From Streptantibioticus cattleyicolor NRRL 8057 = DSM 46488 (GTDB taxonomy: Bacteria > Actinomycetota > Actinomycetes > Streptomycetales > Streptomycetaceae): a DNA stretch of 64,000 nucleotides. Each line of letters opens with the position of its first letter. The stretch's first letter is position 1. Below, piece by piece: positions 49,930 to 63,623 of this stretch. A model generated the notes under the pieces. The model ran no database searches and was not told where the DNA came from. It saw only the letters and a program-made list of their open reading frames with translations. Position numbers and translations under genes: made by a program. The stretch spans positions 620,001-684,000 of the forward strand of contig NC_017586.1 in assembly GCF_000240165.1 (NCBI RefSeq), in the 5' to 3' direction.

Positions 49930-49971
49930 GTCTCCTTCCCGTCGATGACAGCCCGGTGGTAGGCGGGGAGA

Positions 49972-50229: not shown

Positions 50230-50246
50230 TTGAGCTCCTTGGCAGG

Positions 50247-51707
50247 TCAGGTACCGGGCCGGTAGTCGCGCAGCCAGTCCATGGCCTGCGCGGCGCCGTT
50301 CTGGCTACCCAGGAGGTACAGCAGCGCCTGGCTGGTGGCGTCCACCTGGTCGTCGTGGGGGGCGTTCGGGAAGGAGGCGGTCTCCTCGACGTACTCCGCG
50401 ATCCACGGGGCGAGGTCGGGGGCCGGCAGGTGGACGTTCCCAGCTTCCACGAAGGGGGCGACGGCGGAGGCGCGCGCGTACTTGCTGCCTGCCGGGTTCA
50501 CCGGGATCAGGCCGGGCACGGTGGCGCGCAATTGAGCGACGATGGCGGGCCCGTTGGCTTTGTCTTCGACGAGCTTGGCGTGGCTCTGGGGCCACTTCGC
50601 CGAGAGAGCTTCCACGGCGCGACATGCGGCGGGGAAGTCGAGGCGGTCGCGGACCTGGTCCAGCAAGAACACCTGCGCGCCGATCTTCGCCCACACTTGT
50701 CCGACTACGAAGTCGGCTTTCGCGGAGTCCTTGAAGGTCATGTCCCACGACTGGATGACCTGGTGGGCCGCGGGTACCCACCAGGTGCCGTCCGGGCGGC
50801 GCTCTGCCCGTAGCGCGGTGTACCACTGCCAGTGTGCGCGCTTGAACAGCCCCCCTTCGGCCGGCGCCGGGCGCCCTTGGTACAAGGCATTCCACGTGCG
50901 GGCGCCAACGTCCTGCTTGGTGTCCTCCCAGTCCTTGATGGTCCGGCCCCGCGCTGACAGCAGGTACTCACCGGGGGCGCGGCCGAGCGGGTCGTCGTCG
51001 CTCTCAGCCTGTGCCGGGATGTTGATGTGCCGCCAGTCACCGCGGGTGTCCTGGGCGAGCAGTCTCCCGGCGAGGTCGTCTTCGTGCCAGCGGGTGAGGA
51101 CGACGATCACCACCGCCTCGGGGGCAAGGCGTGTGCGAGCGGTATCGGTCCAGAAGTCCCACACCCGCTCGCGGAACACTGCGGACTCGGCCTGGGCGCG
51201 GTCCTTGATCGGGTCGTCGATGATCAGTACGTCGACCGGGCGGCTCGTCAGCGCACCGGCCACGCCGACGCTGTACACGCCACCGATGTGGTCCCGGAGC
51301 TGCCATTCCTGCGCGCTGGAGGTGTCGCCTCGGATGTACAACCCGAGGGCATCGGGGTGGGACCTGATGTCGTTGCGGATCGCGCGTCCCCAGCGCATCG
51401 CGGTGCGCTGCTCGTAGCTCGCGATGGCGACGCGTAGGTCCGGGTTCCGCGACAACATCCACGCCGGAAAGGCCCGGGAGACACGCTGTGACTTGCCTTC
51501 CTGGGGAGGCATCGTCCAGATCAGCCGCCGGCAGCGACCGGCGGCGACGTCCATCAAGTTGGCGTCCAGGAGTTCAAGGGCGGGCGTGGCCACGATCCGT
51601 GGGTCGAGGGCCTTGGCCAGGTGGTGGGGGGCGGGGTATCGGTCGGCGGCTGCATTGCGGCCTTCGAGCCGGTCGGCCGCGCGCACGAGCGCGTTCAGGT
51701 CGGACAT
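50247..51707 (-). CDS. terL: Terminase large subunit
   Basis: The 486-residue protein has the packaging ATPase motifs: Walker A variant MPPQEGKSQR (66-75), Walker B VDVLIIDDPI (158-167) and coupling motif VLTRWHEDD (203-211). The nuclease domain contains QSWDMTFKDSAKADFVVGQV, with its metal Asp in SWD, and a later PHDDQVDATSQALL. It cuts concatemeric DNA and pumps it through the portal. The length is normal for the family. Confidence 0.95.
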   Translation of the reverse strand: MSDLNALVRAADRLEGRNAAADRYPAPHHLAKALDPRIVATPALELLDANLMDVAAGRCRRLIWTMPPQEGKSQRVSRAFPAWMLSRNPDLRVAIASYEQRTAMRWGRAIRNDIRSHPDALGLYIRGDTSSAQEWQLRDHIGGVYSVGVAGALTSRPVDVLIIDDPIKDRAQAESAVFRERVWDFWTDTARTRLAPEAVVIVVLTRWHEDDLAGRLLAQDTRGDWRHINIPAQAESDDDPLGRAPGEYLLSARGRTIKDWEDTKQDVGARTWNALYQGRPAPAEGGLFKRAHWQWYTALRAERRPDGTWWVPAAHQVIQSWDMTFKDSAKADFVVGQVWAKIGAQVFLLDQVRDRLDFPAACRAVEALSAKWPQSHAKLVEDKANGPAIVAQLRATVPGLIPVNPAGSKYARASAVAPFVEAGNVHLPAPDLAPWIAEYVEETASFPNAPHDDQVDATSQALLYLLGSQNGAAQAMDWLRDYRPGT

Positions 51708-51770
51708 GTGCAGGTGCCTCTGGCCGAGGGTGCAGGGGCTTGTGAGAGGGGGTGAGCGCGGGACCGAGGG

Positions 51771-52235
51771 TCACGGGGCGGTGGGTAGGGCGATATGGAG
51801 GCTGTCGAGGACCATCACGGCGTCCGGGACGCTGATGTAGGCGAACTCCCAGTCGGTGCGGCCGTCTCGGTCAACGGTGGCGGTCCACTCGGCGGTGGTG
51901 GCCTCGTCGTACCAGTAGTACTCGCCGGGGCCGGACTGAGCGATCCCTCGGGGCGCGTCTTCGAACAGGCCCGGCAGCAGCCTGTCCAAGACGACGCCGG
52001 CGACGTGTGGGAGGCCGGTGAACTCAATGGTGGCGCGGGTGTGATCGTCTACGCACACGGTCCCGGATCCGACGCCTGCCCGTTCCCAGCGCAGGCGTGT
52101 GGGGCAGCAACCGGTCGGCGGCGGCACGTCCACGAGCAAGGGGAAGGCGGTGCGAAGCGCGGTAGCAGCACTCTGGTGCTGGCGGGTGAACGCCTCTCGC
52201 CAAATGGCGAGTGCTCGTGCGGCGTCGGGCTGCAC
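51771..52235 (-). CDS. Hypothetical protein, 154 aa
   Basis: The GTG is preceded by GAGGGAGG. The N-terminus is helical (REAFTRQHQSAATALRTAFP) and the rest beta-rich with many Trp/Tyr (EYYWYDEATTAEWTATVDRD). No family recognised. It lies between the two terminase genes. Confidence 0.6.
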   Translation of the reverse strand: MQPDAARALAIWREAFTRQHQSAATALRTAFPLLVDVPPPTGCCPTRLRWERAGVGSGTVCVDDHTRATIEFTGLPHVAGVVLDRLLPGLFEDAPRGIAQSGPGEYYWYDEATTAEWTATVDRDGRTDWEFAYISVPDAVMVLDSLHIALPTAP

Positions 52236-52266
52236 AACACCTCCCTCCCACTCGGAGCACCCGTCT

Positions 52267-52857
52267 TCACGCCACAGAACGCAGGTGCCGGGCAGCGGCT
52301 TGGCGAGCCGCCACGGCGGCGGCTCCGGTGATCCCCGCAGCCGCGAGGCCGGCTTCGAGCGCCGACACCAGCGCTTCGGCCTGGCGCTCGGTGACGCGTG
52401 CCATACGGTCTTCGATGTTCAGCCGGGCGATCATGCCGAGGATCTGTCCGGCCCGGTCCATGGCCCGCTCGTACAGGGCGATCTCGGCCCGGAGTTGCTC
52501 GGTGCCTGCCGCTCCCTCGTACCGGATGCGGTCGCCGAGGCGCTGCACCATGCCGCTGATGGCTTCCTGCCAGGCGACGGCCTGGCCGGCGAGCCGGGCC
52601 AGCGCTGCGAAGGGGTCAGCGACTGCCTCGACATTCAGGTCGGCGAGAACGGCGCGGGCCTCGGCTTCGGCCTGCTCGGTGCGTGCTGCGGCGCGCTGGT
52701 TGCGGGTGTTCCCACCGTGGAGGCGACACCGGCCGAACCCCACGTGATCGGTACCCCAGCCCGCCACCAGGCTGCAGACGTCACCGGGAGCGCCCTGCCG
52801 CTTCTGGGCGCCGCACTGGGGTGTGCCGTCCGCGGCCTGTTCCGGCTTCAGGCTCAC
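52267..52857 (-). CDS. Terminase small subunit-like protein
   Basis: The 196 residues include a Cys/His-rich N-terminus with CRLHGGNTRNQRAAARTEQA, the HGG motif frequent in small terminase-type phage proteins, followed by long coiled helices. Together with the upstream HTH protein it probably recognises the packaging site. GTG start, overlapping the upstream stop. Confidence 0.65.
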   Translation of the reverse strand: MSLKPEQAADGTPQCGAQKRQGAPGDVCSLVAGWGTDHVGFGRCRLHGGNTRNQRAAARTEQAEAEARAVLADLNVEAVADPFAALARLAGQAVAWQEAISGMVQRLGDRIRYEGAAGTEQLRAEIALYERAMDRAGQILGMIARLNIEDRMARVTERQAEALVSALEAGLAAAGITGAAAVAARQAAARHLRSVA

Positions 52858-53174
52858 TCGTCACTCCGGCGGTGCAGGCGTTTGATGCGCTGCCGGCGGT
52901 CGGCGATAGTCAGTACCCGGTCGACCGCAGCCAGGTCTCCCTTCATCGCCGGGCCCCACAGGGCCGCTTGCAGTCGGTCATACCGCAGGGCTTCCAGCAT
53001 GCGCTCCGGGTCGAGCGGCGGCCCGTCGTACTGCTCGTCAGCGATCTCCCCTGCGGCGAGCACGGCGTCGGCCACATCCGGGTACCCAAGCTTGGTGGCG
53101 ATGGTCTGCCAGTCCACTCCGGCCAGCTTCAGCGCGAGGGCTTGACTGGCGCGTTCACGGTCGCGGGCATCCAT
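52854..53174 (-). CDS. HTH protein, possible small terminase component
   Basis: The 106-residue product has a homeodomain-like HTH near the start (RASQALALKLAGVDWQTIAT, then LGYPDVADAVLAAGE), the DNA-binding form seen in small terminase subunits. The C-terminus is basic (RRQRIKRLHRRSDE). GGGAG precedes the ATG. Confidence 0.6.
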   Translation of the reverse strand: MDARDRERASQALALKLAGVDWQTIATKLGYPDVADAVLAAGEIADEQYDGPPLDPERMLEALRYDRLQAALWGPAMKGDLAAVDRVLTIADRRQRIKRLHRRSDE

Positions 53175-53185
53175 CGGCGGGCTCC

Positions 53186-53776
53186 CTATCGGGTCAGGAG
53201 GGTATGGAGGTCAGCACGCGCCTGCGGGTCGGTCAGGAATCGACCGGTGTAGGAGGCGGTGACCATGGACGCCCCCGGCTTGCGGGCGCCGCGGTGCGCC
53301 AGGCAGCCGTGTTCGGAGCGGATGATGCAGGCCGCGCCAAGGGTGTCCAGATGCTCGTCCAATGCGGCGGTGACCTGCCGGGTCAGCTGTTCTTGGGTCT
53401 GCAAGCGGCGGGCGTACACGTCCAGTACCCGCGGCAGCTTGGACAGGCCGGCGACCGACGCGCCGGGCTTGGGCTGGTACGCGATGTCCGCAGTGCCGCT
53501 GAACGGGAGCAGGTGGTGTTCGCACAGCGAGGTGAACGGCACGCCGGTGACGGCGATGGGCTGCCCGGCATGGTCGGCCGGGAAGGTCCGCGACAGGTGG
53601 AATGCCGGGTCGTCGCGGTACCCGGCGGTGAATTCGCCGAGCGCTCGCAGCACTCGCGTGGGGGTCTCGGCCAGAGCCGGGCTGTCGGGGTCCAGGCCGA
53701 TCGAGGCGAACCATGCGGTCAGGCCGGCGGTGAACCGGCGGGCGGCGACGCGGAGGGAGGGGTCGGGGTTGGTCAT
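53186..53776 (-). CDS. folE: GTP cyclohydrolase I
   Basis: The 196-residue enzyme has the type I zinc and catalytic motifs: SLCEHHLLPFSG (Cys85, His88) and SEHGCLAHRGARKPG (Cys158). It turns GTP into dihydroneopterin triphosphate, the first step of 7-deazaguanine synthesis. The ATG at 53776 overlaps the stop of queE (ATGA). Phage copies lift precursor supply for DNA base modification. Confidence 0.93.
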   Translation of the reverse strand: MTNPDPSLRVAARRFTAGLTAWFASIGLDPDSPALAETPTRVLRALGEFTAGYRDDPAFHLSRTFPADHAGQPIAVTGVPFTSLCEHHLLPFSGTADIAYQPKPGASVAGLSKLPRVLDVYARRLQTQEQLTRQVTAALDEHLDTLGAACIIRSEHGCLAHRGARKPGASMVTASYTGRFLTDPQARADLHTLLTR

Positions 53777-54480
53777 CGTGCCCTTTCGTTGCCCCAGGTG
53801 AGGACGTGGAGCCGGGTGGTCAGGTTGTAGCCCGCGCGAATGGCGGGGTCGGCGATGACGGCCAGGTGGCGGCCGATGGTGGCGGCGTCGGTACCGCGCG
53901 GCATGATCCACACCTGCTCCGGGGGAATGCCCAGCGCCTGCACCCACTTCTCGGTCTCGGTGACGTCCTCGGCCGAGGCGCAGACGTACTTGAAGGTGGC
54001 TTGGCCGGTGTCGCGTAGCGCGTGGATGGCGTCTTCGCGGATGCGTCTGCTCTCGCGGTCACCGGCGCTGGCGAGTTTCGGCGAGACGTTGAACCGCGTG
54101 GCCCATGCGGTGGTGAGCGGCGTCGGCGCGATCGTGCCGTTGGTCTCGATCTCGATGTCCACCCCGGCGTCGGCGAGACGGTCCAAAAGATCCAGCCAGC
54201 CCGGCTGGTGCTGGTGCAGCAGTGGTTCGCCGCCGGTGATGACGACCACAGCGGGAGCGCCTTCCAAGGCGCGGGCGGCGATGTCGGCGGTGGGCTGGCG
54301 GGTGAGCTGGGTGCGCAGGTCGTAGCGCGTCGCGTCCCACGTGTAGGGAGTGTCACACCAGGAGCAGGTCAGGTTGCACCCGCCGAGCCGTATGAAGGCG
54401 GCGCGCCGGCCGGTGGAGGGACCTTCCCCCTGCACGGTCGGCCCGAAGACCTCCGCGACGACGAGGGTCGGGCCGCTCAT
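53773..54480 (-). CDS. queE: 7-carboxy-7-deazaguanine synthase
   Basis: The 235-residue radical SAM enzyme has CNLTCSWC (Cys35, 39, 42) for the 4Fe-4S cluster, GEGPSTGRRAAFIRLGGC before it, and the SAM-binding VVITGGEPLLH. It converts carboxytetrahydropterin to CDG. The start overlaps the queD stop (ATGA); a longer ORF upstream is a shadow. Confidence 0.95.
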   Translation of the reverse strand: MSGPTLVVAEVFGPTVQGEGPSTGRRAAFIRLGGCNLTCSWCDTPYTWDATRYDLRTQLTRQPTADIAARALEGAPAVVVITGGEPLLHQHQPGWLDLLDRLADAGVDIEIETNGTIAPTPLTTAWATRFNVSPKLASAGDRESRRIREDAIHALRDTGQATFKYVCASAEDVTETEKWVQALGIPPEQVWIMPRGTDAATIGRHLAVIADPAIRAGYNLTTRLHVLTWGNERAR

Positions 54481-54905
54481 GATGCAATCCAGGTAGCGGC
54501 GTTGACGTGGGTCTCGGCCAGGTGGACGCGGGTGACGCGGGCGCCGGGCGCTCGGACCAGGTCCCGGAGTACGCCGGCGGCCATGTCGGCGAGCAGGGCG
54601 GCGACGTTCTCCACGGTCGGCCATCCGGTCACCTCGTAAGCCTTGCAGTCGAAGGAACGCAGAACGGGCAACAGCGGGTCGTTAGGACCGAGCATGACCC
54701 CGTGGTCGAGGTGGGTGTCGATCCACTGGCGCAAGGCCCGCTTGAATGGCCCGAACTCGACGACGAGGCCGGCGGCGAGCTTGGGCGCTTCGACGGTGAC
54801 TTCGGTCCACCAGGAGTGGCCGTGCAGGGAGGTGCACTTGCCCGGCAAGTGGGGCAGTCGGTGGGCCGTCTCGAAGTTGTGGCGGACGGTCACGCTGTGG
54901 GTCAT
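54477..54905 (-). CDS. queD: 6-carboxytetrahydropterin synthase
   Basis: The 142-residue enzyme has the zinc-binding histidines in NFETAHRLPHL (His15) and CTSLHGHSW (His28, His30), with catalytic Cys24. It makes 6-carboxytetrahydropterin from dihydroneopterin triphosphate. The ATG at 54905 is preceded by AGAGGA and overlaps a short upstream frame. Confidence 0.93.
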   Translation of the reverse strand: MTHSVTVRHNFETAHRLPHLPGKCTSLHGHSWWTEVTVEAPKLAAGLVVEFGPFKRALRQWIDTHLDHGVMLGPNDPLLPVLRSFDCKAYEVTGWPTVENVAALLADMAAGVLRDLVRAPGARVTRVHLAETHVNAATWIAS

Positions 54906-55000
54906 TCCAGGCGTCCTCTCATGATGATGCGGGCCAGGATGACGCTCTGGTCTCCCGAGCCTCGGGTATCGGCGAGGGGGTAGGCCGCTTGCGGCCTCAC
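54902..55000 (-). CDS. Short open frame coupled to queD
   Basis: A frame ending RGSGDQSVILARIIMRGRLE stops in the queD ATG as ATGA, with G/C-rich third positions extending back to about 55080, where it meets a stop. Only a weak GTG start is available. Another frame upstream reads VVIACSRRKS, resembling the start of DUF6884-like proteins, so this may be a decayed gene. Confidence 0.3.
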   Translation of the reverse strand: MRPQAAYPLADTRGSGDQSVILARIIMRGRLE

Positions 55001-55127
55001 GATCCGGGCAAGGGCGGAGTACCTGTTCGGCGCCGGAACCGCGGCGTGTTCGTGGTCGGCGCACCCGAGGGCGCGGCCTGGGGCGACTTACGTCGACTAC
55101 AGGCGATGACCACCAGGTCAGGGGAGG

Positions 55128-55799
55128 TCACACCGCATAGTCGGTGGGGTCGGGTACGCCAGCGTCAGCGAAGGCTTCGCGGCGTTCGGTGCACGTACCG
55201 CACGTGCCGCAGTGCTGCTTTTGGCCCTTGTAGCAGCTCCACGACAGGCCCAGTGGGGCACCGAGTAGATGTGCGTGCTCGGCGATCTGCGCCTTGGTCC
55301 ACGTGATGAACGGCGCCTCGATGCGGGGGGTGTGGTGGCCCTCAAGTGCCCGGGTGACGCAGGCCCTCAGGGCGTCGAGGAACGCCGGGCGGCAGTCGGG
55401 GTAGATAGCGTGGTCACCGGCGTGGATACCGAGGCCGACGAGCTGTGCTCGGCGAGCGGCGGCGATCCCGACCGCGATGTTCGCCATGATCGCGTTGCGG
55501 TTGGGCACGACGGTGACGCGCATGGATTCGGCCTCGTAATGCCCGTCCGGTACCTCGATCGCTGGATCGGTGAGGGCGCTTCCGGGCATCAGTGCGCCGA
55601 CGGCCGTCAAGTCCACGACCTGGTGTTCCGCGTCGAAGTGCTGGGCGACCCGCCGAGCGGCGAGAAGTTCGCGGCTGTGCCGCTGGCCGTAGTCGAAGCT
55701 CAGCAGCATCATCTCGTAGCCGCTGTCGTGGTAGTGCGCGGCGAGAGTGGTGGAGTCCATGCCGCCGGAGAAGGAGAGCACGGCGAGGGGGCGACTCAT
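55128..55799 (-). CDS. queC: 7-cyano-7-deazaguanine (preQ0) synthase
   Basis: The 223-residue enzyme has the PP-loop ATPase motif SFSGGMDST (9-17) and the C-terminal zinc site CYKGQKQHCGTCGTC (Cys189, 197, 200, 203). It uses ATP and ammonia to turn CDG into preQ0. It is coupled to the transglycosylase genes by ATGA overlap, which ties base synthesis to DNA insertion. Confidence 0.95.
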   Translation of the reverse strand: MSRPLAVLSFSGGMDSTTLAAHYHDSGYEMMLLSFDYGQRHSRELLAARRVAQHFDAEHQVVDLTAVGALMPGSALTDPAIEVPDGHYEAESMRVTVVPNRNAIMANIAVGIAAARRAQLVGLGIHAGDHAIYPDCRPAFLDALRACVTRALEGHHTPRIEAPFITWTKAQIAEHAHLLGAPLGLSWSCYKGQKQHCGTCGTCTERREAFADAGVPDPTDYAV

Positions 55800-56701
55800 G
55801 AGGTGTTGTCCTTCCGGGCGTCAGCGGCCAGCGCGCGGGCGGCCACGGTGAAGTTCTTGGTATCGGTGTCGGCGAGGAACAGGCCGGTGCCGGTGCTGGT
55901 CCACCCCGGCGGCGGGGCCACGTGGTGACGGCGTTCGAGCCAGCGGCCAAGGCGCCCGTAAGCCACTGCGGGGGTGGCGCGGATCATGGTGTCCTCGGCC
56001 TGGAACTGCTCCGGCGGCTTGCCTGCCTTGGTAGCGAAGCCCCGTCGGCCGACGACTGCGGGGTCTGCGCCGTGGGTGCGCAGGAGCCCGGCGTGCTTGC
56101 GGGCTTCGGCTGGCCGGCCCACGGTCAGCTGCACGATGCGGGAGTGCTGGCTGTCCCACAGCGACATCACTCCGAAGCGTGCGCCGGACGCCCAGCTGGA
56201 GGAGTCCACTGTGTAGAACGGCAGCGCGGCGATGGTGGCGAACCGGGTCTGGCCGAAGCCGTGGTAGACCGCGCCGTGGTGGCGTGCGATGCGGAAGGCT
56301 CGGATCAGCCAGCGCATCACGTCGTCGGTGCGTCGGGCGTAGGGCACCATTCCGCCCAGCGCGATGTACCGGTAGGAGGCGCACAGTGCTTCGAGGCGCC
56401 GCCAGGGGGATCCGATGTGGAATACCGGCAGGACCCGGATGCCCTGGTCTTCGAGGGCGAGGGTGTTGCGGTGGGTGGCGTCGGGGTCGCCGATCACGTC
56501 AAGGGTCGCGGCGGTGGTGATCACGTGGCGCCACTGGTGCAGCCAGGCCGCGTAGTCGGCCAGCTTGATGGTCGAGCCAGTCGTCGCGGCGGAGAATGCC
56601 CCGGAGTCAGCGAAGACCTCGTAGGGGCCGCCGTAGGCGGCGCCTATCGCGGCGAGGTCGGTCTCGCGGTGGTAGTGGAAGCTGGTCAGGTAGCGGAACA
56701 C
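55796..56701 (-). CDS. dpdA: DpdA-like 7-deazaguanine DNA transglycosylase, copy 3
   Basis: The 301-residue protein follows the short phage DpdA layout of tRNA-guanine transglycosylase-like barrels: FADSGAFSAATTGSTIKLAD with Asp32 (general base position), ALGGMVP, HGFGQTRFATIAALPFY, and TVDSSSW with Asp166 (nucleophile position). DpdA swaps guanine in DNA for a 7-deazaguanine. The GTG at 56701 has AGGAG 4 nt upstream. It is very close to copy 2 and differs mainly in the N-terminus and C-terminal third. Confidence 0.85.
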   Translation of the reverse strand: MFRYLTSFHYHRETDLAAIGAAYGGPYEVFADSGAFSAATTGSTIKLADYAAWLHQWRHVITTAATLDVIGDPDATHRNTLALEDQGIRVLPVFHIGSPWRRLEALCASYRYIALGGMVPYARRTDDVMRWLIRAFRIARHHGAVYHGFGQTRFATIAALPFYTVDSSSWASGARFGVMSLWDSQHSRIVQLTVGRPAEARKHAGLLRTHGADPAVVGRRGFATKAGKPPEQFQAEDTMIRATPAVAYGRLGRWLERRHHVAPPPGWTSTGTGLFLADTDTKNFTVAARALAADARKDNTS

Positions 56702-57603
56702 GGGGCTCCTGGTGCGAGGGTCCGGGCGGCGAGGCGCATCTGCTCGTCGTCGGTGCAGGCGAGGAACAGGCAGGTGCCGGTATCCGACCAGCCAGCCGGT
56801 GGAGGAACACGGTGGCGTCGCGCGAGCCATGTCTCCAGGCGGTGGAACGCGGTCATCGGGGCGGCGCGCATCATGTCGTACTCGCGAGCGTGCTCAGCCG
56901 CAGTGCGATGAGCGGTGTGGGCGAACCCTGGTCGGCCGACGACTGCGGGGTCTGCACCGTGGGTGCGCAGGAGCGCGGCGTGCTTGCGGGCTTCGGTTGG
57001 TCGGCCGACCGGCACGGTGACCAGGCGGCAGCGCCGATCGTCCCACAGCGTGATGTTGCCGTACCGGGCGCCGGATACCCACGCGGAAGAGTCCACGGAG
57101 TAGAACGGCAACGCGGCGATGGTGGCGAACCGGGTCTGGCCGAAGCCGTGGTAAACCGCGCCGTGGTGGCGTGCGATGCGGAAGGCTCGGATCAGCCACC
57201 GCATCACGTCGTCGGGGCGCTTGGAGTGCGGGACCATGCCGCCGAGGGCGAGGTAGGCGTGGCGGCTGCACAGGTCCTCCAGCATCGGCCAGGGGGTGCC
57301 GACGTGGAAGGCGGGCAGGACGTTCAGTCCGGCATTCAGCAGCGTGGCGGTGTTGCGGTGGGTGGCCTCGGGGTCGCCGATCACGTCCAGGGTCGCGGCC
57401 GTGGTGATCACGTGGCGCCACTGGTGCAGCCAGGCCGCGTAGTCGGCCAACTTGATCGTCGAGCCAGTCGTCGCGACGGAGAACGCCCCGGAGTCAGCGA
57501 AGATTTCCACCCGGCCGCCGTGAAGGGCTTGGAGATCACCGACGAGTTCCCCCATATCGGTGTCGCGCCAGTACGCGTACGACGTCAGGCAGCGCAGCGT
57601 CAT
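56686..57603 (-). CDS. dpdA: DpdA-like 7-deazaguanine DNA transglycosylase, copy 2
   Basis: The 305-residue protein has FADSGAFSVATTGSTIKLAD with Asp37, TLDVIGDPEATHRNT, ALGGMVP, HGFGQTRFATIAALPFY and SVDSSAW with Asp171. It shares long nearly identical DNA stretches with copy 3, so the two arose by a fairly recent duplication. It overlaps copy 3 by 16 nt and follows copy 1 after one base. GGAGGGGG precedes the ATG. Confidence 0.85.
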   Translation of the reverse strand: MTLRCLTSYAYWRDTDMGELVGDLQALHGGRVEIFADSGAFSVATTGSTIKLADYAAWLHQWRHVITTAATLDVIGDPEATHRNTATLLNAGLNVLPAFHVGTPWPMLEDLCSRHAYLALGGMVPHSKRPDDVMRWLIRAFRIARHHGAVYHGFGQTRFATIAALPFYSVDSSAWVSGARYGNITLWDDRRCRLVTVPVGRPTEARKHAALLRTHGADPAVVGRPGFAHTAHRTAAEHAREYDMMRAAPMTAFHRLETWLARRHRVPPPAGWSDTGTCLFLACTDDEQMRLAARTLAPGAPCSAT

Positions 57604-57604
57604 C

Positions 57605-58510
57605 TCACCGCACCCCCTCCTCCAGCAACATCCGCAGTGGTGCGATGTCCTGGTCCCGCGCTCCGGAAAGAGCGAGGTACACCTTGGTGCCCTGGTCGGC
57701 GGCGCGGGGCAGCGGCGGCGCAGGTACACGGTGGCGGGTGGTCAGGGACCCCTCCATGAACTGGTAGGCGCGGGCACAACCGGCTGTGAGCAGATCCCGG
57801 TCGGCTCCGGTGGATCCGGCGGCGGGCCGCATGAAGTTGCGGTCCAGCAGCCGGTGTGGCGGCAGGCCGTGTGCGCGGACCAGCGCAGCGTTCGGCAGTA
57901 CGTCGGCGGGGTTGCGGAAGAACAGGCTGCGCATACGGAGAGTGCGGGCGTCCCACAGGTAGACCAGACCGAAGCGTTGTCCCATCGTGTAGGAGCTGCT
58001 GTCGATCGAGTAGAACGGCAGGTGGCGGACGAGATTGGCGGAGGTCAGCCCGAAGCCGTGGAGCGCGGTGCCGTAGGGCCGAGCGACTTTGAAGGCGCGG
58101 ATCAGCCAGGCCATGAGCGCCTTCTGCTTGGCGGCGCCTGCGGCGTGGAGCGCCAGCCCGCCGAGGGCGATGTACCGGTGCTGGGCGCACAGCCCTTCCA
58201 GCACGTCCCAAGGCTCACCTGTGTGAAACACCGGCAACACGCTGCAGCCAGCCTCGGTGAGGCGATCCAGGTTCGCGGCGGTGGCCCGGTGGTCACCGAT
58301 CACGTCAAGGGTCGCGGCGACGGTAATCAACGGCTGCCAGTGTCGTAGCCAGGCAGCGTAGTCGCCCAACTTTATCGTCACGCCGGTCGTCGCAGCGGAG
58401 AACGCCCCGGAGTCGGCGAACAGGTCCACGTTCCCGCCGAGATCGTGCACCAGGGCGGCCAGGTCGGTATCGCGGTGGTAGTGGTAGCTGGCCAGGACCC
58501 GCAGCGTCAC
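57605..58510 (-). CDS. dpdA: DpdA-like 7-deazaguanine DNA transglycosylase, copy 1
   Basis: The 301-residue, more divergent paralogue has FADSGAFSAATTGVTIKLGD with Asp33, ATLDVIGD, ALGGLAL, HGFGLTSANLVRHLPFY and SIDSSSY with Asp170. The active-site pattern is intact. The C-terminal third differs most from copies 2 and 3, so substrate or DNA context may differ. The GTG start overlaps the stop of the ParB-like gene (GTGA). Confidence 0.85.
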   Translation of the reverse strand: MTLRVLASYHYHRDTDLAALVHDLGGNVDLFADSGAFSAATTGVTIKLGDYAAWLRHWQPLITVAATLDVIGDHRATAANLDRLTEAGCSVLPVFHTGEPWDVLEGLCAQHRYIALGGLALHAAGAAKQKALMAWLIRAFKVARPYGTALHGFGLTSANLVRHLPFYSIDSSSYTMGQRFGLVYLWDARTLRMRSLFFRNPADVLPNAALVRAHGLPPHRLLDRNFMRPAAGSTGADRDLLTAGCARAYQFMEGSLTTRHRVPAPPLPRAADQGTKVYLALSGARDQDIAPLRMLLEEGVR

Positions 58511-59100
58511 GCCATCGACCGCAGCTTGTTCATGAGGTGGATGAACCGTGCCGCGTCGTCGTCCGGTGTCTCGCACCCGGACGACAGGTCGTAGAAATCG
58601 TCGCGTACGTTGGGCGGGACCTTGAACCGCAGTACGGGCCACAGGTCGTCGTCCTCAGGCTCGCCGAACTCGGCGGCGAGTGCGTCCAGGTCCGGCGGTG
58701 GTGTGATCAGCATCTCGACGTCGGTCTCGGTGTAGCCGGTGCCGGTGTAGTCCCCGTCGAGGTAACTCAGCAGCTCCGCCAAGGCGTCGTTGTCGTATGT
58801 GCCCAGCTCCGCCAAGCGGTTGTCCGCCAGGTTGATGCGCCGGGCCTCGGCGTCATCGCACCTGACAATCTCGCACCGCGCGGTCTGCGCGCCTTCGGCG
58901 GCGAGAGCCTGCAAGGTGTGGTTTCCCGCGAGGACGATCAGCGGTCCGCTTGGTATCTCCCGGACGATCAGCGACCGGTACTGTCCGTTCCGGCGCAGGC
59001 TCTGGCGGATCGCCTCGACGTCCCCCCTCTTGGCGTTGCCGGGGAACAGCATGAGTTCGTCCAGGGGAACGTCGCGGGTGGTGACGTACTCGGCAGGCAT
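58507..59100 (-). CDS. ParB/Srx-domain protein, possible DpdB analogue
   Basis: The 197-residue protein has a ParB-N/sulfiredoxin-like domain: VPLDELMLFPGNAKRGDVEA, then SLIVREIPSGPLIVLAGNHT and RINLADNRLAELGTYD. GGGAG precedes the ATG. It heads the dpdA run and is coupled to it. In bacterial Dpd systems a ParB-domain ATPase (DpdB) is needed with DpdA; here only the ParB-like part exists, so the analogy is by context. Confidence 0.78.
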   Translation of the reverse strand: MPAEYVTTRDVPLDELMLFPGNAKRGDVEAIRQSLRRNGQYRSLIVREIPSGPLIVLAGNHTLQALAAEGAQTARCEIVRCDDAEARRINLADNRLAELGTYDNDALAELLSYLDGDYTGTGYTETDVEMLITPPPDLDALAAEFGEPEDDDLWPVLRFKVPPNVRDDFYDLSSGCETPDDDAARFIHLMNKLRSMA

Positions 59101-59177
59101 GAAGGGCTCCCGGGGGACGGGGACGGTGCACTACGTGAGGGTGGCGCCCAGGCGGGTGGACCTCGGCGAGGGCCGCG

Positions 59178-59212
59178 CCACGGCCTTCTCCTGGGGGCCG
59201 GCCCGGCCGTGG
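59178..59212 (-). terminator. Hairpin ahead of the ParB-dpdA genes
   Basis: CCACGGCC pairs with GGCCGTGG across a 19-nt GC-rich loop in the 138-nt gap between the 131-aa gene and the ParB-like gene. It lies beyond the ParB start and may act as an attenuator. Confidence 0.35.
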
Positions 59213-59238
59213 AGTCGGCGGCTGGGCCGACGTGCGGG

Positions 59239-59634
59239 TCAGTCCGTCGGACGGACCGGGCCTGCGGACGCGGGCTTCTGTCCCAGGGCCAGGGGCGTGT
59301 CGAAGAGTCCGCGCACGGCCTTGATGGCGTCGGCGAGAGCCTGCTTGGCGTCGGTGCCCGGGCCAGCGAAGACCGGTTCCACCGCGTTGAGGACGGTAGC
59401 CAGCAGGCGCCCCACTTCGCTGACGGCTTCCGTCTTCAGACGATCGAACTCGGGTCGCACCGCTTCCGTCAGAGACTCCACAAGGGTCTCCAGAGCAGTC
59501 TCGCTGCCAGCGCTGACGTGATCGATGTCCGCCCGGAGCCGGGCGGCAACGGCGCGGAGCCGGCCGGCCAAGGCGTGGCCCTCGTCCTCCAGGTGCGCGA
59601 TGACGGTGTGCAGCTCGTCCAGGATGTGGCTCAT
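59239..59634 (-). CDS. Hypothetical coiled helical protein, 131 aa
   Basis: The ATG overlaps the upstream stop (ATGA). Almost the whole chain is amphipathic helix (HTVIAHLEDEGHALAGRLRA, then FDRLKTEAVSEVGRLLATVL), suggesting a coiled bundle. No family recognised. It precedes the modification genes and may belong to the same transcript. Confidence 0.6.
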   Translation of the reverse strand: MSHILDELHTVIAHLEDEGHALAGRLRAVAARLRADIDHVSAGSETALETLVESLTEAVRPEFDRLKTEAVSEVGRLLATVLNAVEPVFAGPGTDAKQALADAIKAVRGLFDTPLALGQKPASAGPVRPTD

Positions 59635-59948
59635 GCGGTGTCCTTCTGGGCTCGGGCGGCGCGCAGCGCCTGGGTGAGGGTTTCGGGGAAGTCGTCGCTG
59701 GACGCGTTGACTACCTGGATCACCACGGATCCCCGGGACGCTCGTTCCTGATCGGGCGCCGGATGCGCGAGGACCGCGGTGAACTCCATGCGCACGGTGA
59801 CCGGGCCAAGGGAACCATCGGTGTGACCGCCGCGCGGGGAGGTGTACTCCAGGGTCCAGTTGTCGGGGCGCAGGACCTGGCCGTCGATCTCGATCCCGTC
59901 GGCGACGGGATGGACCCGCGGGAATGTCGGTGGGGGATGCAGGGACAA
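59631..59948 (-). CDS. Hypothetical protein, 105 aa
   Basis: I infer a TTG start at 59948 with GGAG 5 nt upstream, because the longer frame runs through two terminator-like hairpins. The sequence is beta-rich (GIEIDGQVLRPDNWTLEYTS, then VTVRMEFTAVLAHP) with a helical end. Function unknown. Confidence 0.5.
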   Translation of the reverse strand: MSLHPPPTFPRVHPVADGIEIDGQVLRPDNWTLEYTSPRGGHTDGSLGPVTVRMEFTAVLAHPAPDQERASRGSVVIQVVNASSDDFPETLTQALRAARAQKDTA

Positions 59949-59976
59949 AGGCAGCTCCGAGGGGTGGGGGCTGCCC

Positions 59977-60048
59977 GCCGCCGCGCACCCCTCAACACGC
60001 GGCGGCAGGCAGCATGAGGCCCCGCCGCAAATCAGTGCGCGCGGGGCC
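59977..60048 (-). terminator. Tandem hairpins after the excisionase-like gene
   Basis: GCCGCCGCG/CGCGGCGGC (59977-60006, extended by TGCC/GGCA) and GGCCCCGC/GCGGGGCC (60018-60048) follow the stop of the HTH gene. They should end its transcript. Confidence 0.65.
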
Positions 60049-60061
60049 GGCCTTGGGTTGG

Positions 60062-60274
60062 TCAGCTCCGGGATGGCCTGCCGCTTCGAGGAGTTGGCAG
60101 CCGTGGAGGGCACGTGATCCGGCCAGCGGCTACATCGCGGAGTTCCATCCAGTCGTATCGGCCGTCATGGCTCGTGAGTCGGCCTTCGTGCGCCCAGCGC
60201 TTCACCGTGCCGATAGGGCGGCCGAGGAGGTGAGCGGTGTCCGCCGGGCTGAGGAGTACGGGGCGGGTAGTCAT
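60062..60274 (-). CDS. Excisionase-like helix-turn-helix protein
   Basis: The 70-residue protein has a MerR/Xis-type winged HTH: LLSPADTAHLLGRPIGTVKR, then WAHEGRLTSHDGRYDWMELR. The wing ends with the usual basic residue before the second helix. GGAGG lies upstream of the ATG. It may be an excisionase or a small early regulator; no integrase was found nearby. Confidence 0.75.
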   Translation of the reverse strand: MTTRPVLLSPADTAHLLGRPIGTVKRWAHEGRLTSHDGRYDWMELRDVAAGRITCPPRLPTPRSGRPSRS

Positions 60275-60300
60275 GGCACGCGCCCTCCGGAGACGCGGAA

Positions 60301-60323
60301 GGCCGTCCCATCAGGGGACGGCC
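60301..60323. terminator. Hairpin between HTH and secreted-protein genes
   Basis: GGCCGTCC pairs with GGACGGCC around a short loop; TT follows on the plus strand and TTCC on the minus strand, so it may work in both directions. Confidence 0.7.
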
Positions 60324-60399
60324 TTGGTGCACGAGTTCCAGCAGACCAGATGATCGGTTCGCTTCCCTGCGGAAGTCAAGTCGGGCGTGCGGTCCGGGG

Positions 60400-60639
60400 T
60401 CAGCGGCGCTTGGTGATGCTGACGGTTGATCGGCGAATCACGGTGGTTGTGTGCCGGGTCGCGGGAGCCCGGCGGGGTACCGGACTGACGACGTGCACAT
60501 GGGTGTCGTGGTGGACGACGACCACAGTCGAGTGGTGGGGACCGGTGGCTGTGCTGTCGCATGCGACGGCAGCACCCATGACCGCGGCTAGCCCGACGGT
60601 CCCTACGGTTACGGCGAGTAGAGGCTTCACTGTTCTCAT
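60400..60639 (-). CDS. Small exported or lipoprotein-like protein
   Basis: The 79-residue chain begins MRTVKPLLAVTVGTVGLAAV and reaches AACDSTATG, a basic start and hydrophobic stretch ending in a Cys, so a signal peptide or loose lipobox is likely. The mature part is His/Thr/Val-rich. The start overlaps the upstream stop (ATGA). Possibly a superinfection-exclusion type surface protein, but this is a guess. Confidence 0.55.
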   Translation of the reverse strand: MRTVKPLLAVTVGTVGLAAVMGAAVACDSTATGPHHSTVVVVHHDTHVHVVSPVPRRAPATRHTTTVIRRSTVSITKRR

Positions 60640-60827
60640 TCTCTGGACGGGTCTGACACTGCTCGCCAGACGCGTTTGCGGATTCCGGGGCGGTAGACGG
60701 TGATGGGATCGGGGATGCAGCGCCAGGGCGGGGTACGGCCCTCCCGTGCACGAGTTGCGTTCATCACCGCGTCCGTGGGGACGATGGAGCCGGAGTCGTA
60801 GACTTCACTGGCGAAGCACCGCAGCAT
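60636..60827 (-). CDS. Small hypothetical protein, 63 aa
   Basis: This ORF is coupled to the next gene by ATGA. The SD is weak. The sequence (RTPPWRCIPDPITVYRPGIR) shows no known motif. Confidence 0.45.
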   Translation of the reverse strand: MLRCFASEVYDSGSIVPTDAVMNATRAREGRTPPWRCIPDPITVYRPGIRKRVWRAVSDPSRE

Positions 60828-60854
60828 GTCGCGGCGTACCCCCGGCTGGACCGG

Positions 60855-61116
60855 TCAGCCACGGTCGTACTCGGTGCGCCATGCCCTCCACGGCTCGGTG
60901 GGGATGTCAAGGCGCCATTGCATCCGCAGCATGATGCGGTCTTCCACGATGGAGGCTGGTAGACCCAGCCACCGGTCTCCTCGTGCCGGCGATGTCGGTC
61001 ACGAGCGCCGACAGGTAGTAGCTCAGCTCGACGGGGCCTCGCTCGACAGCGCAGCCGATGGAGTCCACCCACGAGTCCATGCCGACCGACCAGTGGGTGA
61101 ACAACGAGGCGATCAC
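60855..61116 (-). pseudogene. Apparently frameshifted small gene
   Basis: From the GTG at 61116 (GTGA overlap) the frame reads IASLFTHWSVGMDSWVDSIG and ends at 60907 with a low-quality tail. From about 60990 the neighbouring frame reads LGLPASIVEDRIMLRMQWRL to a stop at 60855, with better codon use. Removing one C in the GACCGG near 60992 joins them into one 86-residue protein. Either a real frameshift, a sequence error, or two genes. Confidence 0.45.
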
Positions 61117-61706
61117 TGGCCGGGCTCCGGGGCCCCGCTGATCGTGATCCCGTAGCGGGCCGCGCGGTCCCGGCAGACGCGGCAGGTCACGGCCGCGTCC
61201 GGAGTAAGTGCCAGGTCCGAGAACCGGTCTCGCGGCTTGCACAAGGCCTCTCCGGTGTCACGGCGGAACCGGTCGACCGTGACGGGCTGGTTGAGCACGA
61301 GGTGGTACCCGCCACTGAATACGTCACCTTGGCGGGGCTTGGAGGCATGACGGACATGCGCGGTGAGGGGAGCGGCCGGTGCCGCCGGTGTTGCGAGGAG
61401 GATCGGCCCGGTGGAGGCCGTCTTGCGCACCACGATCCAGTCGGCGGCCTCCAGTGTGGCGGCGTACTTGGCCACCATGTCGCGGCGTTCGGCGGCTCGT
61501 TCGGCGCTGGTGGGCCGGTCGGGGTCGCACAGGTCGATGCCCGGTTGCTGATGGTGCACACGGGCCTGTCTGGGGAGTGGGCCGAGGCCGACGCTGTACC
61601 CCGCGGTGGTACAGCGGCCGTACTGGTTGAGACCAGCAGGGCTGTGTTGGCGGGACAAGACGCTGGCAGCTTGGCTGACGATCGGGTCAGTGATGAGGGG
61701 CTTCAC
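61113..61706 (-). CDS. Hypothetical protein, 197 aa
   Basis: I chose the GTG at 61706 because an upstream TTG lies beyond a terminator hairpin; GGTAGGT precedes it. The protein has a mixed alpha/beta pattern (EAADWIVVRKTASTGPILLA) and a late Cys pair (TCRVCRDRAARYG). Function unknown. Confidence 0.55.
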   Translation of the reverse strand: MKPLITDPIVSQAASVLSRQHSPAGLNQYGRCTTAGYSVGLGPLPRQARVHHQQPGIDLCDPDRPTSAERAAERRDMVAKYAATLEAADWIVVRKTASTGPILLATPAAPAAPLTAHVRHASKPRQGDVFSGGYHLVLNQPVTVDRFRRDTGEALCKPRDRFSDLALTPDAAVTCRVCRDRAARYGITISGAPEPGQ

Positions 61707-61724
61707 AGTACCTACCGGGGTGAG

Positions 61725-61749
61725 CCCGGCCGTCGTGATGACGGCCGGG
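61725..61749 (-). terminator. Terminator after the 537-aa gene
   Basis: CCCGGCCGTC pairs perfectly with GACGGCCGGG around GTGAT. It lies between two minus-strand genes. Confidence 0.7.
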
Positions 61750-61804
61750 GACAACTGAGGAAGGCGGGGCGGCTGGGTCGTGCGCAGTCCCCGTCCTGGT
61801 TGGG

Positions 61805-63418
61805 TCAGCGAGGGCCGCGCACCGGGCGCCCATGGCGGTCGACGGCTGGCCCGCGCCAGGCGAGCCGGACCTCTTCGTCGTTGTCGAGGAACAACGCCGT
61901 GTCCTCGTCTACCGTGTAGATCGCACGGCCGTGTGTGGCGGGAGTGTTGAGCCAGACCGTGCGCAGAGTGCCACGCAGGTGTGCCCGGTCGCCGGAGCGC
62001 AGATCACGAGCCGGGACAGGTTCGGGGTGGGCGTAGGCCGCCAGCCGCGGGGTGAGACGCGGCAGCACGGTACGGGTGCGGCGGGTGCGGATCACGCGGT
62101 ATGCCCACTCAGGTGAGAGGGCTTCCCGCTCTTGGGCCTCCCGCTGGGCGTGGGTTTCACCGTCCAGCGGCGGGTGGCCGACGCGCTCCCACGTCTGTCC
62201 GTTGTCGGCGCTGACCTCGAGGACGTACGTGTCCTTGCGGTAGATCTCCTCTTCGGTTGGTTCTGCTGGTGTGCGCTCGGGAGCAGGGGGTGGCGGGGAA
62301 GTGACGAGTGCCACACGGCTGGCAGGCCAGGTGACGCCGTTGACGACAGCTCGCGGGTAAGGGCCGACCATGCGGAGGTGTACCGTGCCGAGGTCTCCGC
62401 GCGGGGTGCGGACGGTGGCGCCGCTGTCGATGACGGCCGGTGTATCGGTCGTGGTGGTTCGCCGGGCGGTGAGGTACGTCGAGCCGGTGTTGGCCACGGA
62501 CCACCCCCATCGCTCCAAGTGCGCCCCGACGATGTCGAGTTGGGAATCCCAAGACTTTCGCTCGGGTGTGAGGTGCTGGCCGCCTTCGAGCCAGTAGACA
62601 CGCACTGCGCCGTCTTCCTCGGGGATGACCACGACCCCCCGGGTGTCGGGAGCGTCGTACTCGTCGTAGTAGTCGCCGGTCAGTTCAGCGTGAGCGAGAC
62701 CGACGAGGGCGGTGAGTGCCGCGCGGACATCGGGGTGGTCTGCGTGCTTGGGCAGGCTCCCGACAGCAAAGCCAGCATGAGTGACGATGACGCCTTCCAT
62801 CGGCTGGCCCCCGCTCGTGGGGGCTGCCTCAGTTGGCACGCTCGGAGTGCCCGCCTGCGTCTGGGCGTACGGGGAGTCATCGTCGTGGTAGTCGCAGCGT
62901 CCGGCTGCCAGTTGGATGACGCTGGTGTTCTGGAGCCTCGCCGTCACGTCATCCTTGATCTGCTGGATGCCAGCTCGTTTGGTTCCGAACTCGGCGTCGG
63001 CGGCCCGCTCGCCGGGCCAGGTCAGCATCCAGCGCGGACCCGAGGGAAAGCCAGCGCGTACCGCGTCGGGGTCGGCTGGACAGTTGTCGAGACTGTAGGT
63101 GCCGTAAGGGGTGTGGACCCGGTAGCAGCCGGAGGCCACGGGCCGGATGTCCAGCAGGTCGGTGACATCTGAGGCTTCCCCTGCGGCAGCGGACTGCAAC
63201 GCGGCGTGGACTTGCTCGCCTTTGCTGGTCAAGACCCACCCGTCCCCGAGGCGCAGCATGCCGCGCTCGAACAGAGCGCGCAGGGTGCCGCTGTCACCGC
63301 GGACTTCTCGGCCTTCCCCTCCGGTGGAGATCGCGCGGCCCATGCGCTCGCTGATGCAGTACCGCGTCATGAGGTTCTTGCGAATGAGCGTGCTGATCGG
63401 ACCTGCGTCGACTTCCAT
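61805..63418 (-). CDS. Large hypothetical protein, 537 aa
   Basis: GGGAG lies 6 nt upstream of the ATG. The N-terminal 80 residues look like a winged helix (LMTRYCISERMGRAISTGG, then LFERGMLRLGDGWVLTSKGE). The rest is beta-rich and contains three similar modules with Trp/Gly (for example GYYDEYDAP-like and WPASRVALVTSPPPP). It resembles large hypothetical proteins of Streptomyces phages and plasmids. Role unknown. Confidence 0.6.
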   Translation of the reverse strand: MEVDAGPISTLIRKNLMTRYCISERMGRAISTGGEGREVRGDSGTLRALFERGMLRLGDGWVLTSKGEQVHAALQSAAAGEASDVTDLLDIRPVASGCYRVHTPYGTYSLDNCPADPDAVRAGFPSGPRWMLTWPGERAADAEFGTKRAGIQQIKDDVTARLQNTSVIQLAAGRCDYHDDDSPYAQTQAGTPSVPTEAAPTSGGQPMEGVIVTHAGFAVGSLPKHADHPDVRAALTALVGLAHAELTGDYYDEYDAPDTRGVVVIPEEDGAVRVYWLEGGQHLTPERKSWDSQLDIVGAHLERWGWSVANTGSTYLTARRTTTTDTPAVIDSGATVRTPRGDLGTVHLRMVGPYPRAVVNGVTWPASRVALVTSPPPPAPERTPAEPTEEEIYRKDTYVLEVSADNGQTWERVGHPPLDGETHAQREAQEREALSPEWAYRVIRTRRTRTVLPRLTPRLAAYAHPEPVPARDLRSGDRAHLRGTLRTVWLNTPATHGRAIYTVDEDTALFLDNDEEVRLAWRGPAVDRHGRPVRGPR

Positions 63419-63623
63419 GATGGCTCCCTTCGGTGGCGGTGAACGATCCCATCGTATTGCCTGCCGACTCTAATTACAAGCCGGTACCGGCTACATGTGA
63501 AATCTGATTCAAAGTCAAACGAATCTCCGCTCGATCATGAAATGGGAGGTACCGTCGCCCATGAAGTCTCGGCACTCGTGCCGGATTTCCCCTCCGGCGG
63601 TGGTCGCTACAACCACCGCCCGC
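63419..63623 (-). promoter_or_regulatory. Promoter region with palindromic operator
   Basis: On the minus strand TTGACT (63518-63513) and TGTAGC (63495-63490), 17 nt apart, form a possible promoter for the 537-aa gene. A perfect 14-bp palindrome AGCCGGTACCGGCT (63479-63492) overlaps the -10 box and is a likely operator. This stretch is more A/T-rich than the surroundings. Confidence 0.5.

What the first reader, a model, noticed from the sequence alone, without database searches (positions are those of the whole stretch)
53186..59100. Phage 7-deazaguanine DNA-modification operon with three tandem DpdA paralogues
The sequence shows complete FolE, QueD, QueE and QueC with intact catalytic motifs, coupled to three DpdA-like proteins that each retain FADSGAFS and xDSS. 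From known biology, these four enzymes make preQ0 and DpdA exchanges it for guanine in DNA, protecting phage DNA from restriction. From memory, phages usually carry one such enzyme, so three in a row suggests distinct DNA contexts, different bases, or a heteromer. No QueF- or amidotransferase-like gene was seen, so dPreQ0 is the predicted mark.
Basis: partly seen in the sequence, partly recalled or inferred. Interest (0 to 1): 0.87.

Follow-up and report, generated by a model that had tools for sequence, protein, structure and literature searches.

The report
Prophage DNA-guanine modification operon, three DpdAs
A virus lying in a bacterial chromosome carries a full gene set for swapping guanine in DNA for a look-alike base, with three related swapping enzymes in a row instead of the usual one, which would let biologists test whether phages combine such enzymes to mark different DNA sites.

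Summary
On the minus strand, 53186-59100 holds intact FolE, QueE, QueD and QueC, three DpdA-family genes and a ParB-like gene, beside the terminase genes of a siphovirus-like prophage. Fold is tested: the D3 model aligns with archaeal TGT (Z 16.9) and solved DpdA 7ui4 (Z 15.9). The host genome has no TGT, no QueF and no other QueC, so the cassette looks self-sufficient; dPreQ0 is the likely mark. Three DpdAs is an extreme, not a freak: 12 further cassettes and two GenBank Microbacterium phages carry two. The copies are old types in fixed order (A-B-C from the ParB side); relatives keep A+C, B+C, A alone or C alone. Here B and C are old paralogues with parts of the barrel core overwritten by gene conversion, the rest left divergent. 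The ParB core is shared with phage DNA-methylase fusions and carries a tail seen only in DpdA loci. A DUF6884 (possibly DpdC-like) gene is broken here, intact in a sister cassette. Best reading: non-redundant DpdAs with different target contexts; activity and motifs are untested. New variant of a known kind.

The parts
58507..59100 (-). ParB/Srx-like protein (197 aa), first gene of the cassette; its stop overlaps the D3 start
   Evidence: phrog_723 1.2e-44; model residues 6-135 align to Noc 7ng0, Z 14.1, rmsd 2.7 over 128 aa
57605..58510 (-). D3, DpdA type A (301 aa)
   Evidence: phrog_887 1.1e-47; model pLDDT 93; TGT/DpdA fold Z 15.9-16.9; type A clade 96/91
56686..57603 (-). D2, DpdA type B (305 aa)
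   Evidence: phrog_887 6.6e-40; groups with the first copies of L010 and L013, 95/95
55796..56701 (-). D1, DpdA type C (301 aa); overlaps D2's end and QueC's start
   Evidence: phrog_887 3.5e-47; outside the tracts it groups with second copies of L006, L010, L011, L013 (SH-aLRT 92)
57361..57489 (-). D2 conversion tract 1, pairs with D1 56474-56602
   Evidence: all tracts together 95.7% nt and 91.5% at third positions; elsewhere 62.8% and 53.4%
56474..56602 (-). D1 conversion tract 1 (residues 34-76: GAFS to DVIGD)
57106..57204 (-). D2 conversion tract 2, pairs with D1 56219-56317
56219..56317 (-). D1 conversion tract 2 (residues 129-161, with HGFGQT; ends just before the DSS nucleophile motif)
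56944..56994 (-). D2 conversion tract 3, pairs with D1 56057-56107
56057..56107 (-). D1 conversion tract 3 (residues 199-215)
55128..55799 (-). QueC (223 aa), no amidotransferase domain
   Evidence: PF06508 7.3e-61; TIGR00364 187.4 bits, cut-off 150.3; only PF06508 match in the genome
54905..55131 (-). Remnant of a DUF6884 gene: start and last ~50 codons kept in different frames, roughly 190-210 bp between them missing
   Evidence: 3' part in frame, E 1.3e-22; frames shown; blastn 88.7% over 151 nt to L008; L008 copy PF21818 6.9e-20
54477..54905 (-). QueD (142 aa)
   Evidence: PF01242 1.2e-23, phrog_2389 1.2e-36
53773..54480 (-). QueE (235 aa), CxxxCxxC radical SAM
   Evidence: PF04055 1e-09, phrog_2076 2e-64
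53186..53773 (-). FolE (195 aa)
   Evidence: PF01227 1.2e-53
52854..53174 (-). Small gene after FolE, also there in several relatives
   Evidence: phrog_645 6.4e-15; synteny
50247..51707 (-). Terminase large subunit: phage context
   Evidence: phrog_38 4.9e-98

Best explanation
A phage 7-deazaguanine DNA-modification cassette in a prophage. FolE, QueD, QueE and QueC turn GTP into preQ0. Three DpdA-family transglycosylases, each with its catalytic residues, then exchange guanines in phage DNA for preQ0, giving dPreQ0, which hinders restriction enzymes. The three are not redundant: types A, B and C recognise different sequence contexts, so that more sites are covered. Gene conversion renews parts of the shared barrel core while the flanking parts stay different. 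The ParB-like protein, a nucleotide-binding fold whose core is also fused to phage DNA methylases, serves as DNA-loading or targeting partner, as DpdB is said to do in bacterial Dpd systems. Computed here: gene content, fold, catalytic residues, old paralogy, gene conversion, purifying selection on the DpdAs, ParB linkage, broken DUF6884 gene, no host TGT or QueF. Inferred: chemistry on DNA (about 0.85), protection from restriction (0.8), ParB as partner (0.65), different target contexts (0.5).
For: Family and fold matches, with solved DpdA 7ui4 at Z 15.9, rmsd 3.1 over 238 aa. D3 is tblastn-homologous to phage CAjan DpdA (31.4% over residues 5-183, E 1e-12; H132), whose deletion removed modification and restriction resistance; the same gene set without amidotransferase gave dPreQ0 in Rosebush and CAjan (PMC6884629 passages). 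Catalytic Asp columns invariant in 32 of 32 rows and 28 of 28 rows that include three GenBank phages. Host: no TGT (controls ring in 14 of 14), no QueF (controls 8 of 14), no second QueC (controls 12 of 14). Clades A and B/C at 96/91 and 99/98; D2 with type B of L010/L013 at 95/95. Order kept: A upstream in 7 of 7 A-containing pairs, B before C in 2 of 2. D1-D2 conversion: 3 of 10000 shuffles reach the sum-of-squares statistic. dN/dS 0.15-0.51 in 13 of 13 pairs. L014 and L016, 92-98% identical over most of the compared 7 kb, differ by a whole C-type DpdA. ParB within 500 bp of DpdA in 33 of 52 distinct loci; ParB core fused to a DNA methylase domain in 7 of 9 ORFs scanned (9 of the 37 ParB-seeded loci); ParB tail in 21 of 49 distinct ParB-core ORFs of DpdA loci, 0 of 34 elsewhere.
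Against: No experiment on this phage. A single DpdA (CAjan) modifies two motifs, GA and GGC (cited in PMC8306585), so three enzymes are not needed for several motifs. Pfam TGT gave no match and the NCBIfam DpdA model stayed far below its cut-off; membership rests on PHROGs, tblastn and fold. 19 of 52 distinct loci lack a ParB within 500 bp, and DpdB is said to be dispensable in certain bacterial Dpd clusters (PMC12839542 passage). Most GenBank phages manage with one DpdA. The longest-run statistic for conversion is weak (464 of 10000), and the tract tree uses columns chosen for identity. A host DUF6884 protein 1.1 Mb away could act on dPreQ0. No integrase of the two families searched lies in the phage region, so the prophage may be defective.
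Confidence: 0.55

Rival explanations
1. The DpdAs form a heteromer: the active transglycosylase is a mixed dimer of different DpdAs, like eukaryotic TGT with two unlike subunits (recalled).
For: Neighbouring, overlapping genes; two copies in 12 further cassettes; order kept.
Against: All three keep both catalytic Asp residues, so none looks like an inactive subunit; relatives hold only A (L016) or only a C-like copy (L174) in the stretches fetched.
Confidence: 0.18
2. Dosage or drift: extra copies raise enzyme amount or are passing duplicates without separate roles.
For: Copy number differs between close phages (L014/L016); D1 and D2 still exchange DNA.
Against: The types are old and ordered; dN/dS below 0.52 in 13 of 13 pairs, though this speaks of long-term, not recent, constraint; outside the tracts D1-D2 are 51.9% identical in protein.
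Confidence: 0.2
3. The paralogues insert different bases or act on different nucleic acids (for example tRNA for one of them).
For: Ten columns fixed differently in type A and types B/C, some beside the catalytic motifs.
Against: Only a preQ0 pathway is seen; QueF absent, DUF6884 gene broken; the host has no TGT.
Confidence: 0.07
4. The cassette is a relic in a defective prophage and makes no mark.
For: DUF6884 gene broken; no PF00589 or PF00239 match inside the phage region.
Against: The eight other cassette genes have open, near full-length frames; 11 of 12 relatives with a measurable QueC-QueD gap have no room for the DUF6884 gene there. Only the DpdAs were tested for selection.
Confidence: 0.1

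Closest known systems
[quoted passage not shown]
   Same: FolE, QueD, QueE, QueC plus DpdA, no amidotransferase; dPreQ0 measured there, predicted here
   Different: The paper's passages speak of one DpdA per phage; three here, in a prophage, with a ParB-like gene at the head of the operon and a broken DUF6884 gene
Microbacterium phages Megan and Nicole72 (NC_073368, OR159674)
   Same: ParB-like gene, two DpdAs, QueC, QueD, QueE in the same order, FolE next in Megan
   Different: Two DpdAs; Megan's QueC carries a glutamine amidotransferase domain, so dG+ is expected there; Nicole72 is described as lytic (PMC12352058 passage)
Two-copy cassettes in Streptomyces and Kutzneria genomes and viral contigs (L004, L005, L006, L008-L011, L013-L015, L165, L182)
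   Same: Same kind of operon; A+C or B+C where typed
   Different: Window has A+B+C and the D1-D2 conversion mosaic; in L005 a ParB gene and in L182 a DUF6884 gene lies between the two DpdAs
Bacterial Dpd islands (passages in PMC12839542, PMC11888242)
   Same: DpdA-family enzyme, ParB-superfamily partner gene, DUF6884 gene (remnant here)
   Different: The restriction genes dpdD-K were not searched for by family; bacterial DpdA model not reached; the ParB-like protein is not shown to be a DpdB
CBASS Cap10 (PDB 9ntn), TGT-family enzyme
   Same: Distant shared fold (Foldseek E 1.9e-4)
   Different: Acts in protein modification (PMC11996544, abstract start in a listing)

Membership tests
TGT/DpdA superfamily | TGT barrel fold | tested here: met
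   D3 model pLDDT 93; 1iq8 Z 16.9 rmsd 2.9/237, 7ui4 DpdA Z 15.9 rmsd 3.1/238. D1 and D2 not modelled; 46-66% identical to each other and D3
TGT/DpdA superfamily | Two catalytic Asp residues (roles recalled from TGT) | tested here: met
   Invariant in 32 of 32 and 28 of 28 rows
TGT/DpdA superfamily | Pfam TGT PF01702 match | tested here: not met
   No PF01702 match up to E 0.1; none genome-wide. The model seems too narrow for phage DpdAs of this family
Phage DpdA (phrog_887 / phrog_7068) | Sequence family of phage queuine tRNA-ribosyltransferase-like proteins | tested here: met
   E 6.6e-40 to 1.1e-47 for phrog_887; tblastn to CAjan
Bacterial DpdA equivalog (NF041059) | Score above 200 bits | tested here: not met
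   D1 16.2 bits, D2 and D3 no match; PADLOC DpdA likewise weak, D1 only
Phage dPreQ0 group | FolE, QueD, QueE, QueC complete, with DpdA | tested here: met
Phage dPreQ0 group | No ArcS, QueF/QueF-L or Gat-QueC | tested here: inconclusive
   QueF none genome-wide; QueC has no GATase; no GATase_6 match in the phage region; ArcS not searched and not every prophage ORF scanned
Phage dPreQ0 group | dPreQ0 in virion DNA | not testable with these tools
   Needs LC-MS/MS
ParB/Srx superfamily | ParB N-domain fold | tested here: met
   Noc 7ng0 Z 14.1, rmsd 2.7/128 aa, model residues 6-135; phrog_723; Pfam ParB_N below cut-off, 14 of 26.3 bits
DpdB of bacterial Dpd | ATPase used for preQ0 insertion | not testable with these tools
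   Analogy only: passages in PMC12839542 and PMC6392294
DUF6884 / DpdC-like | Intact DUF6884 frame in the cassette | tested here: not met
   Remnant only; intact in L008 (PF21818 6.9e-20). Papers differ on DpdC's domain: DUF6884 (PMC11888242) or PF03883 (PMC12839542); L008 scores 19.5 bits for PF03883, cut-off 29.6

The most novel reading that the evidence does not exclude
A combinatorial DNA-marking system: actinophages draw DpdA types A, B and C, each with its own target context, into one operon behind a shared ParB-type DNA-loading module that is also traded with DNA methylases. Gene conversion renews the common barrel core while leaving the target-reading parts different, so phages change their modification pattern by gaining or losing one gene, as restriction systems change specificity subunits.
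Probability: 0.33. Interest if true: 0.75.

Novelty: new variant of a known kind. Interest (0 to 1): 0.52.

Why it matters
How phage DpdAs choose which guanines to replace is open as far as the passages I saw go, and close cassettes that differ by one DpdA (L014/L016) plus a three-type cassette are natural swap sets for answering it. If the types read different sites, they become a toolkit for placing 7-deazaguanines and an explanation of how phages out-run restriction. The ParB link and the broken or intact DUF6884 gene give concrete candidates for a loading factor and for the step to dADG, which the MED16 authors call poorly explained in phages (PMC8306585 passages).

Tried and rejected
D2 as a fresh duplicate of D1: rejected; outside three tracts they are 62.8% nt / 51.9% aa identical and D2 pairs with type B of other phages. 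Inactive partner subunit: rejected, catalytic residues kept. tRNA queuosine role: disfavoured, no TGT, QueF or second QueC in the host. PDB sequence search with the DpdA profile: two chance-level hits. Plain Foldseek against PDB: 4 matches with E below 0.001, led by Cap10, no TGT among the 50 rows shown; VIA-align then ranked TGTs first. Rfam on 46000-64000: none. Promoter/terminator scan: 1 promoter-like site (0.3 expected), 2 terminator-like (2.0 expected), not used. Conversion test: longest-run statistic weak (464 of 10000), sum of squares strong (3 of 10000); of the other 13 pairs tested L013's own pair is next (410 and 210 of 10000). L094's two DpdA fragments were dropped from the pair count. 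The identity line's alignment (0 of 281) is a letter-case fault of my script and was not used. ParB-tail result is partly circular: 16 of the 20 rows of A3, all from DpdA loci, seeded the tail model. 33 of 52 includes contig ends: L008 starts at its DpdA, and L020's near-identical twins L021-L023 do have a ParB. Which GenBank records hold the 3 extra places was not seen; Megan and Nicole72 came by Foldseek. Fusion of ParB domains with DNA methyltransferases is already in print (PMC12783734 passage). Two DpdAs in one phage: search listings and passages of PMC6884629 and PMC12352058 showed no description, but Gedara 2023, Cui 2023, Kot 2020 and the 2024 review are not held and may have one.
Full report
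What is there. The window is part of a 6.28 Mb contig of an unnamed 8.1 Mb genome; its phage relatives point to an actinobacterial host (inference). Phage families match on the minus strand from 25.6 kb (phrog_5650, unknown function) over tape measure, portal and terminase to the ParB-like gene at 59.1 kb, and a replication-initiation-like protein lies at 64.3-65.1 kb; three ORFs in between gave no PHROG match, so the right border is not fixed. FolE, QueE, QueD and QueC match their families over nearly their whole length, though QueE and QueD stay below NCBIfam's equivalog cut-offs. The three 301-305 aa proteins match the phage families phrog_887 and phrog_7068, named queuine tRNA-ribosyltransferase; Pfam TGT is not matched and the bacterial DpdA model is far below its cut-off.

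Are they DpdA? An AlphaFold2 model of D3 from 32 homologues has pLDDT 93. VIA-align puts archaeal TGT 1iq8 first (Z 16.9, rmsd 2.9 over 237 aa), with solved DpdA 7ui4 tied within one unit (Z 15.9, rmsd 3.1 over 238 aa). tblastn reaches phage CAjan DpdA (31.4% over residues 5-183, E 1e-12), whose deletion removed modification and restriction resistance (PMC6884629, passages seen). Both catalytic Asp columns are invariant in 32 of 32 aligned homologues. Fold and residues fit; activity is inferred. D1 and D2 were not modelled.

The mark. The same gene set without an amidotransferase gave dPreQ0 in Rosebush (about 28% of G) and CAjan (about 32%) (PMC6884629 passages). Here QueC has no amidotransferase domain, unlike Gat-QueC of phage Megan, and QueF is not found in the genome (the search rings in 8 of 14 control genomes). 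The host has no TGT (controls 14 of 14) and no other QueC (controls 12 of 14). ArcS was not searched. Between QueC and QueD lies a remnant of a DUF6884 gene: its start and its last ~50 codons are in different frames and roughly 190-210 bp between them are gone. The sister cassette L008 keeps the gene at this place (PF21818 6.9e-20); in 11 of 12 relatives with a measurable QueC-QueD gap there is no room for it. One paper gives DUF6884 as the domain of dpdC, the dADG enzyme (PMC11888242 passage), another gives PF03883 (PMC12839542 passage); L008's protein matches the latter only weakly (19.5 bits, cut-off 29.6). A host DUF6884 protein 1.1 Mb away could still act. dPreQ0 remains the likely mark.

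How unusual are three? Among GenBank phages, 217 records match D3 at 220 places at E up to 1e-5, so nearly all show one. The closest relatives differ. Of 52 distinct DpdA loci gathered up to then, 11 gave two hits, one of them (L094) only fragments; 41 gave one. Later searches added two-copy L165 and L182; Megan and Nicole72 are two-copy GenBank phages. That makes 12 further two-copy cassettes plus two GenBank phages; the window is the only three-copy one seen. In genome surveys with the DpdA profile 2 of 199 relatives, 6 of 394 of the class and 3 of 391 of the order matched, the window's genome included each time; of the rest only G409 had a pair, and G386, G435, G450 and G618 gave weak partial matches. 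Loci were fetched with these proteins as queries, so these are not prevalence figures.

What the three are. A tree of 33 DpdAs separates type A (with D3, 96/91) from a B/C clade (99/98); D2 falls with the first copies of L010 and L013 (95/95); many forks inside B/C are open. Seven pairs are A then C-like (L004, L006, L008, L009, L011, L014, L165) and two are B then C (L010, L013), in that order from the ParB side; L005, L015, L182 and the Microbacterium pairs were not typed. The window is A-B-C. L014 and L016 are 98%, 97% and 92% identical over three stretches of the compared 7 kb (and 76% over one short stretch at QueC's start), yet only L014 has the second DpdA. L174 shows a single C-like copy. 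So A alone or C alone occurs, and types come and go as units.

Gene conversion. D1 and D2 share three tracts with 95.7% nt identity (91.5% at third positions); elsewhere 62.8% (53.4%). In 10000 shuffles of polymorphic third positions, 3 reach the observed sum of squared runs and 464 the longest run; of the other 13 pairs tested the nearest is L013's own (410 and 210). On the tract columns D1 and D2 are sisters (SH-aLRT 96). On the other 206 columns D1 groups with second copies of L006, L010, L011 and L013 (92), and D2 lies apart, nearest L010's and L013's first copies by path, with an unresolved fork. Tracts were chosen by identity, so the first tree is partly circular. They cover GAFS to DVIGD, the HGFG stretch up to just before the DSS motif, and a short third piece; the N-terminus, residues 77-128, the part from the DSS motif on and the C-terminus stay divergent. 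dN/dS is 0.15-0.51 in 13 of 13 pairs examined.

The ParB-like gene. Model residues 6-135 match ParB/Noc folds (Z 14.1). A ParB core lies within 500 bp of DpdA in 33 of 52 distinct loci; of the other 19, 16 show none in the fetched stretch (some are contig ends) and 3 lie 739-917 bp away. Close ParB cores (up to 81% identical) belong to longer proteins in other phages: of 9 such ORFs scanned, from 9 of 37 ParB-seeded loci, 7 had DNA methylase PF01555, one DUF6610, one nothing. Such fusions are known (PMC12783734 passage). A C-terminal tail occurs in 21 of 49 distinct ParB-core ORFs of DpdA loci (36 of 68 before removing duplicates) and in 0 of 34 (39) in loci without DpdA (16 seed rows came from DpdA loci). 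Published text calls DpdB a ParB-like ATPase used for insertion, dispensable in certain clusters (PMC12839542 passage), and generally present with DpdA (PMC6392294 passage). I infer a loading or targeting partner.

Verdict. Best explanation: a dPreQ0 cassette whose DpdAs have different target contexts. Against it: a single CAjan DpdA already modifies GA and GGC (PMC8306585 passage). The decisive experiment is one-by-one expression with motif mapping.

Noticed in passing
window 54905-55131; L008 2646-3089; L182 6825-7220: DUF6884 gene broken in the window, intact in L008, and lying between two DpdAs in L182.
   Followed up: partly
L042, L047, L052, L057, L064, L067, L072: ParB cores close to the window's, fused to N6/N4 DNA methylase domains: suggests module exchange between methylase genes and DpdA operons.
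   Followed up: partly
L045 5109-9412; L011 7327-9099: Several ParB-like genes before DpdA: three before one DpdA in L045, two before two DpdAs in L011.
   Followed up: no
window 21111-24388: Left of the prophage: a protein with a lantibiotic-dehydratase C-terminal domain (PF14028) and a PadR-like regulator, perhaps part of a peptide natural-product cluster.
   Followed up: no
G000:C2:618021-618590, left of the window: Nearest PF00589 recombinase, about 27 kb from the leftmost phage-type gene; no PF00589 or PF00239 match from there to 1.77 Mb, so how the prophage integrates is unclear.
   Followed up: partly
window 25596-26519: Protein with a PP2C-phosphatase match and a phrog_5650 match at the left edge of the phage region.
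   Followed up: no
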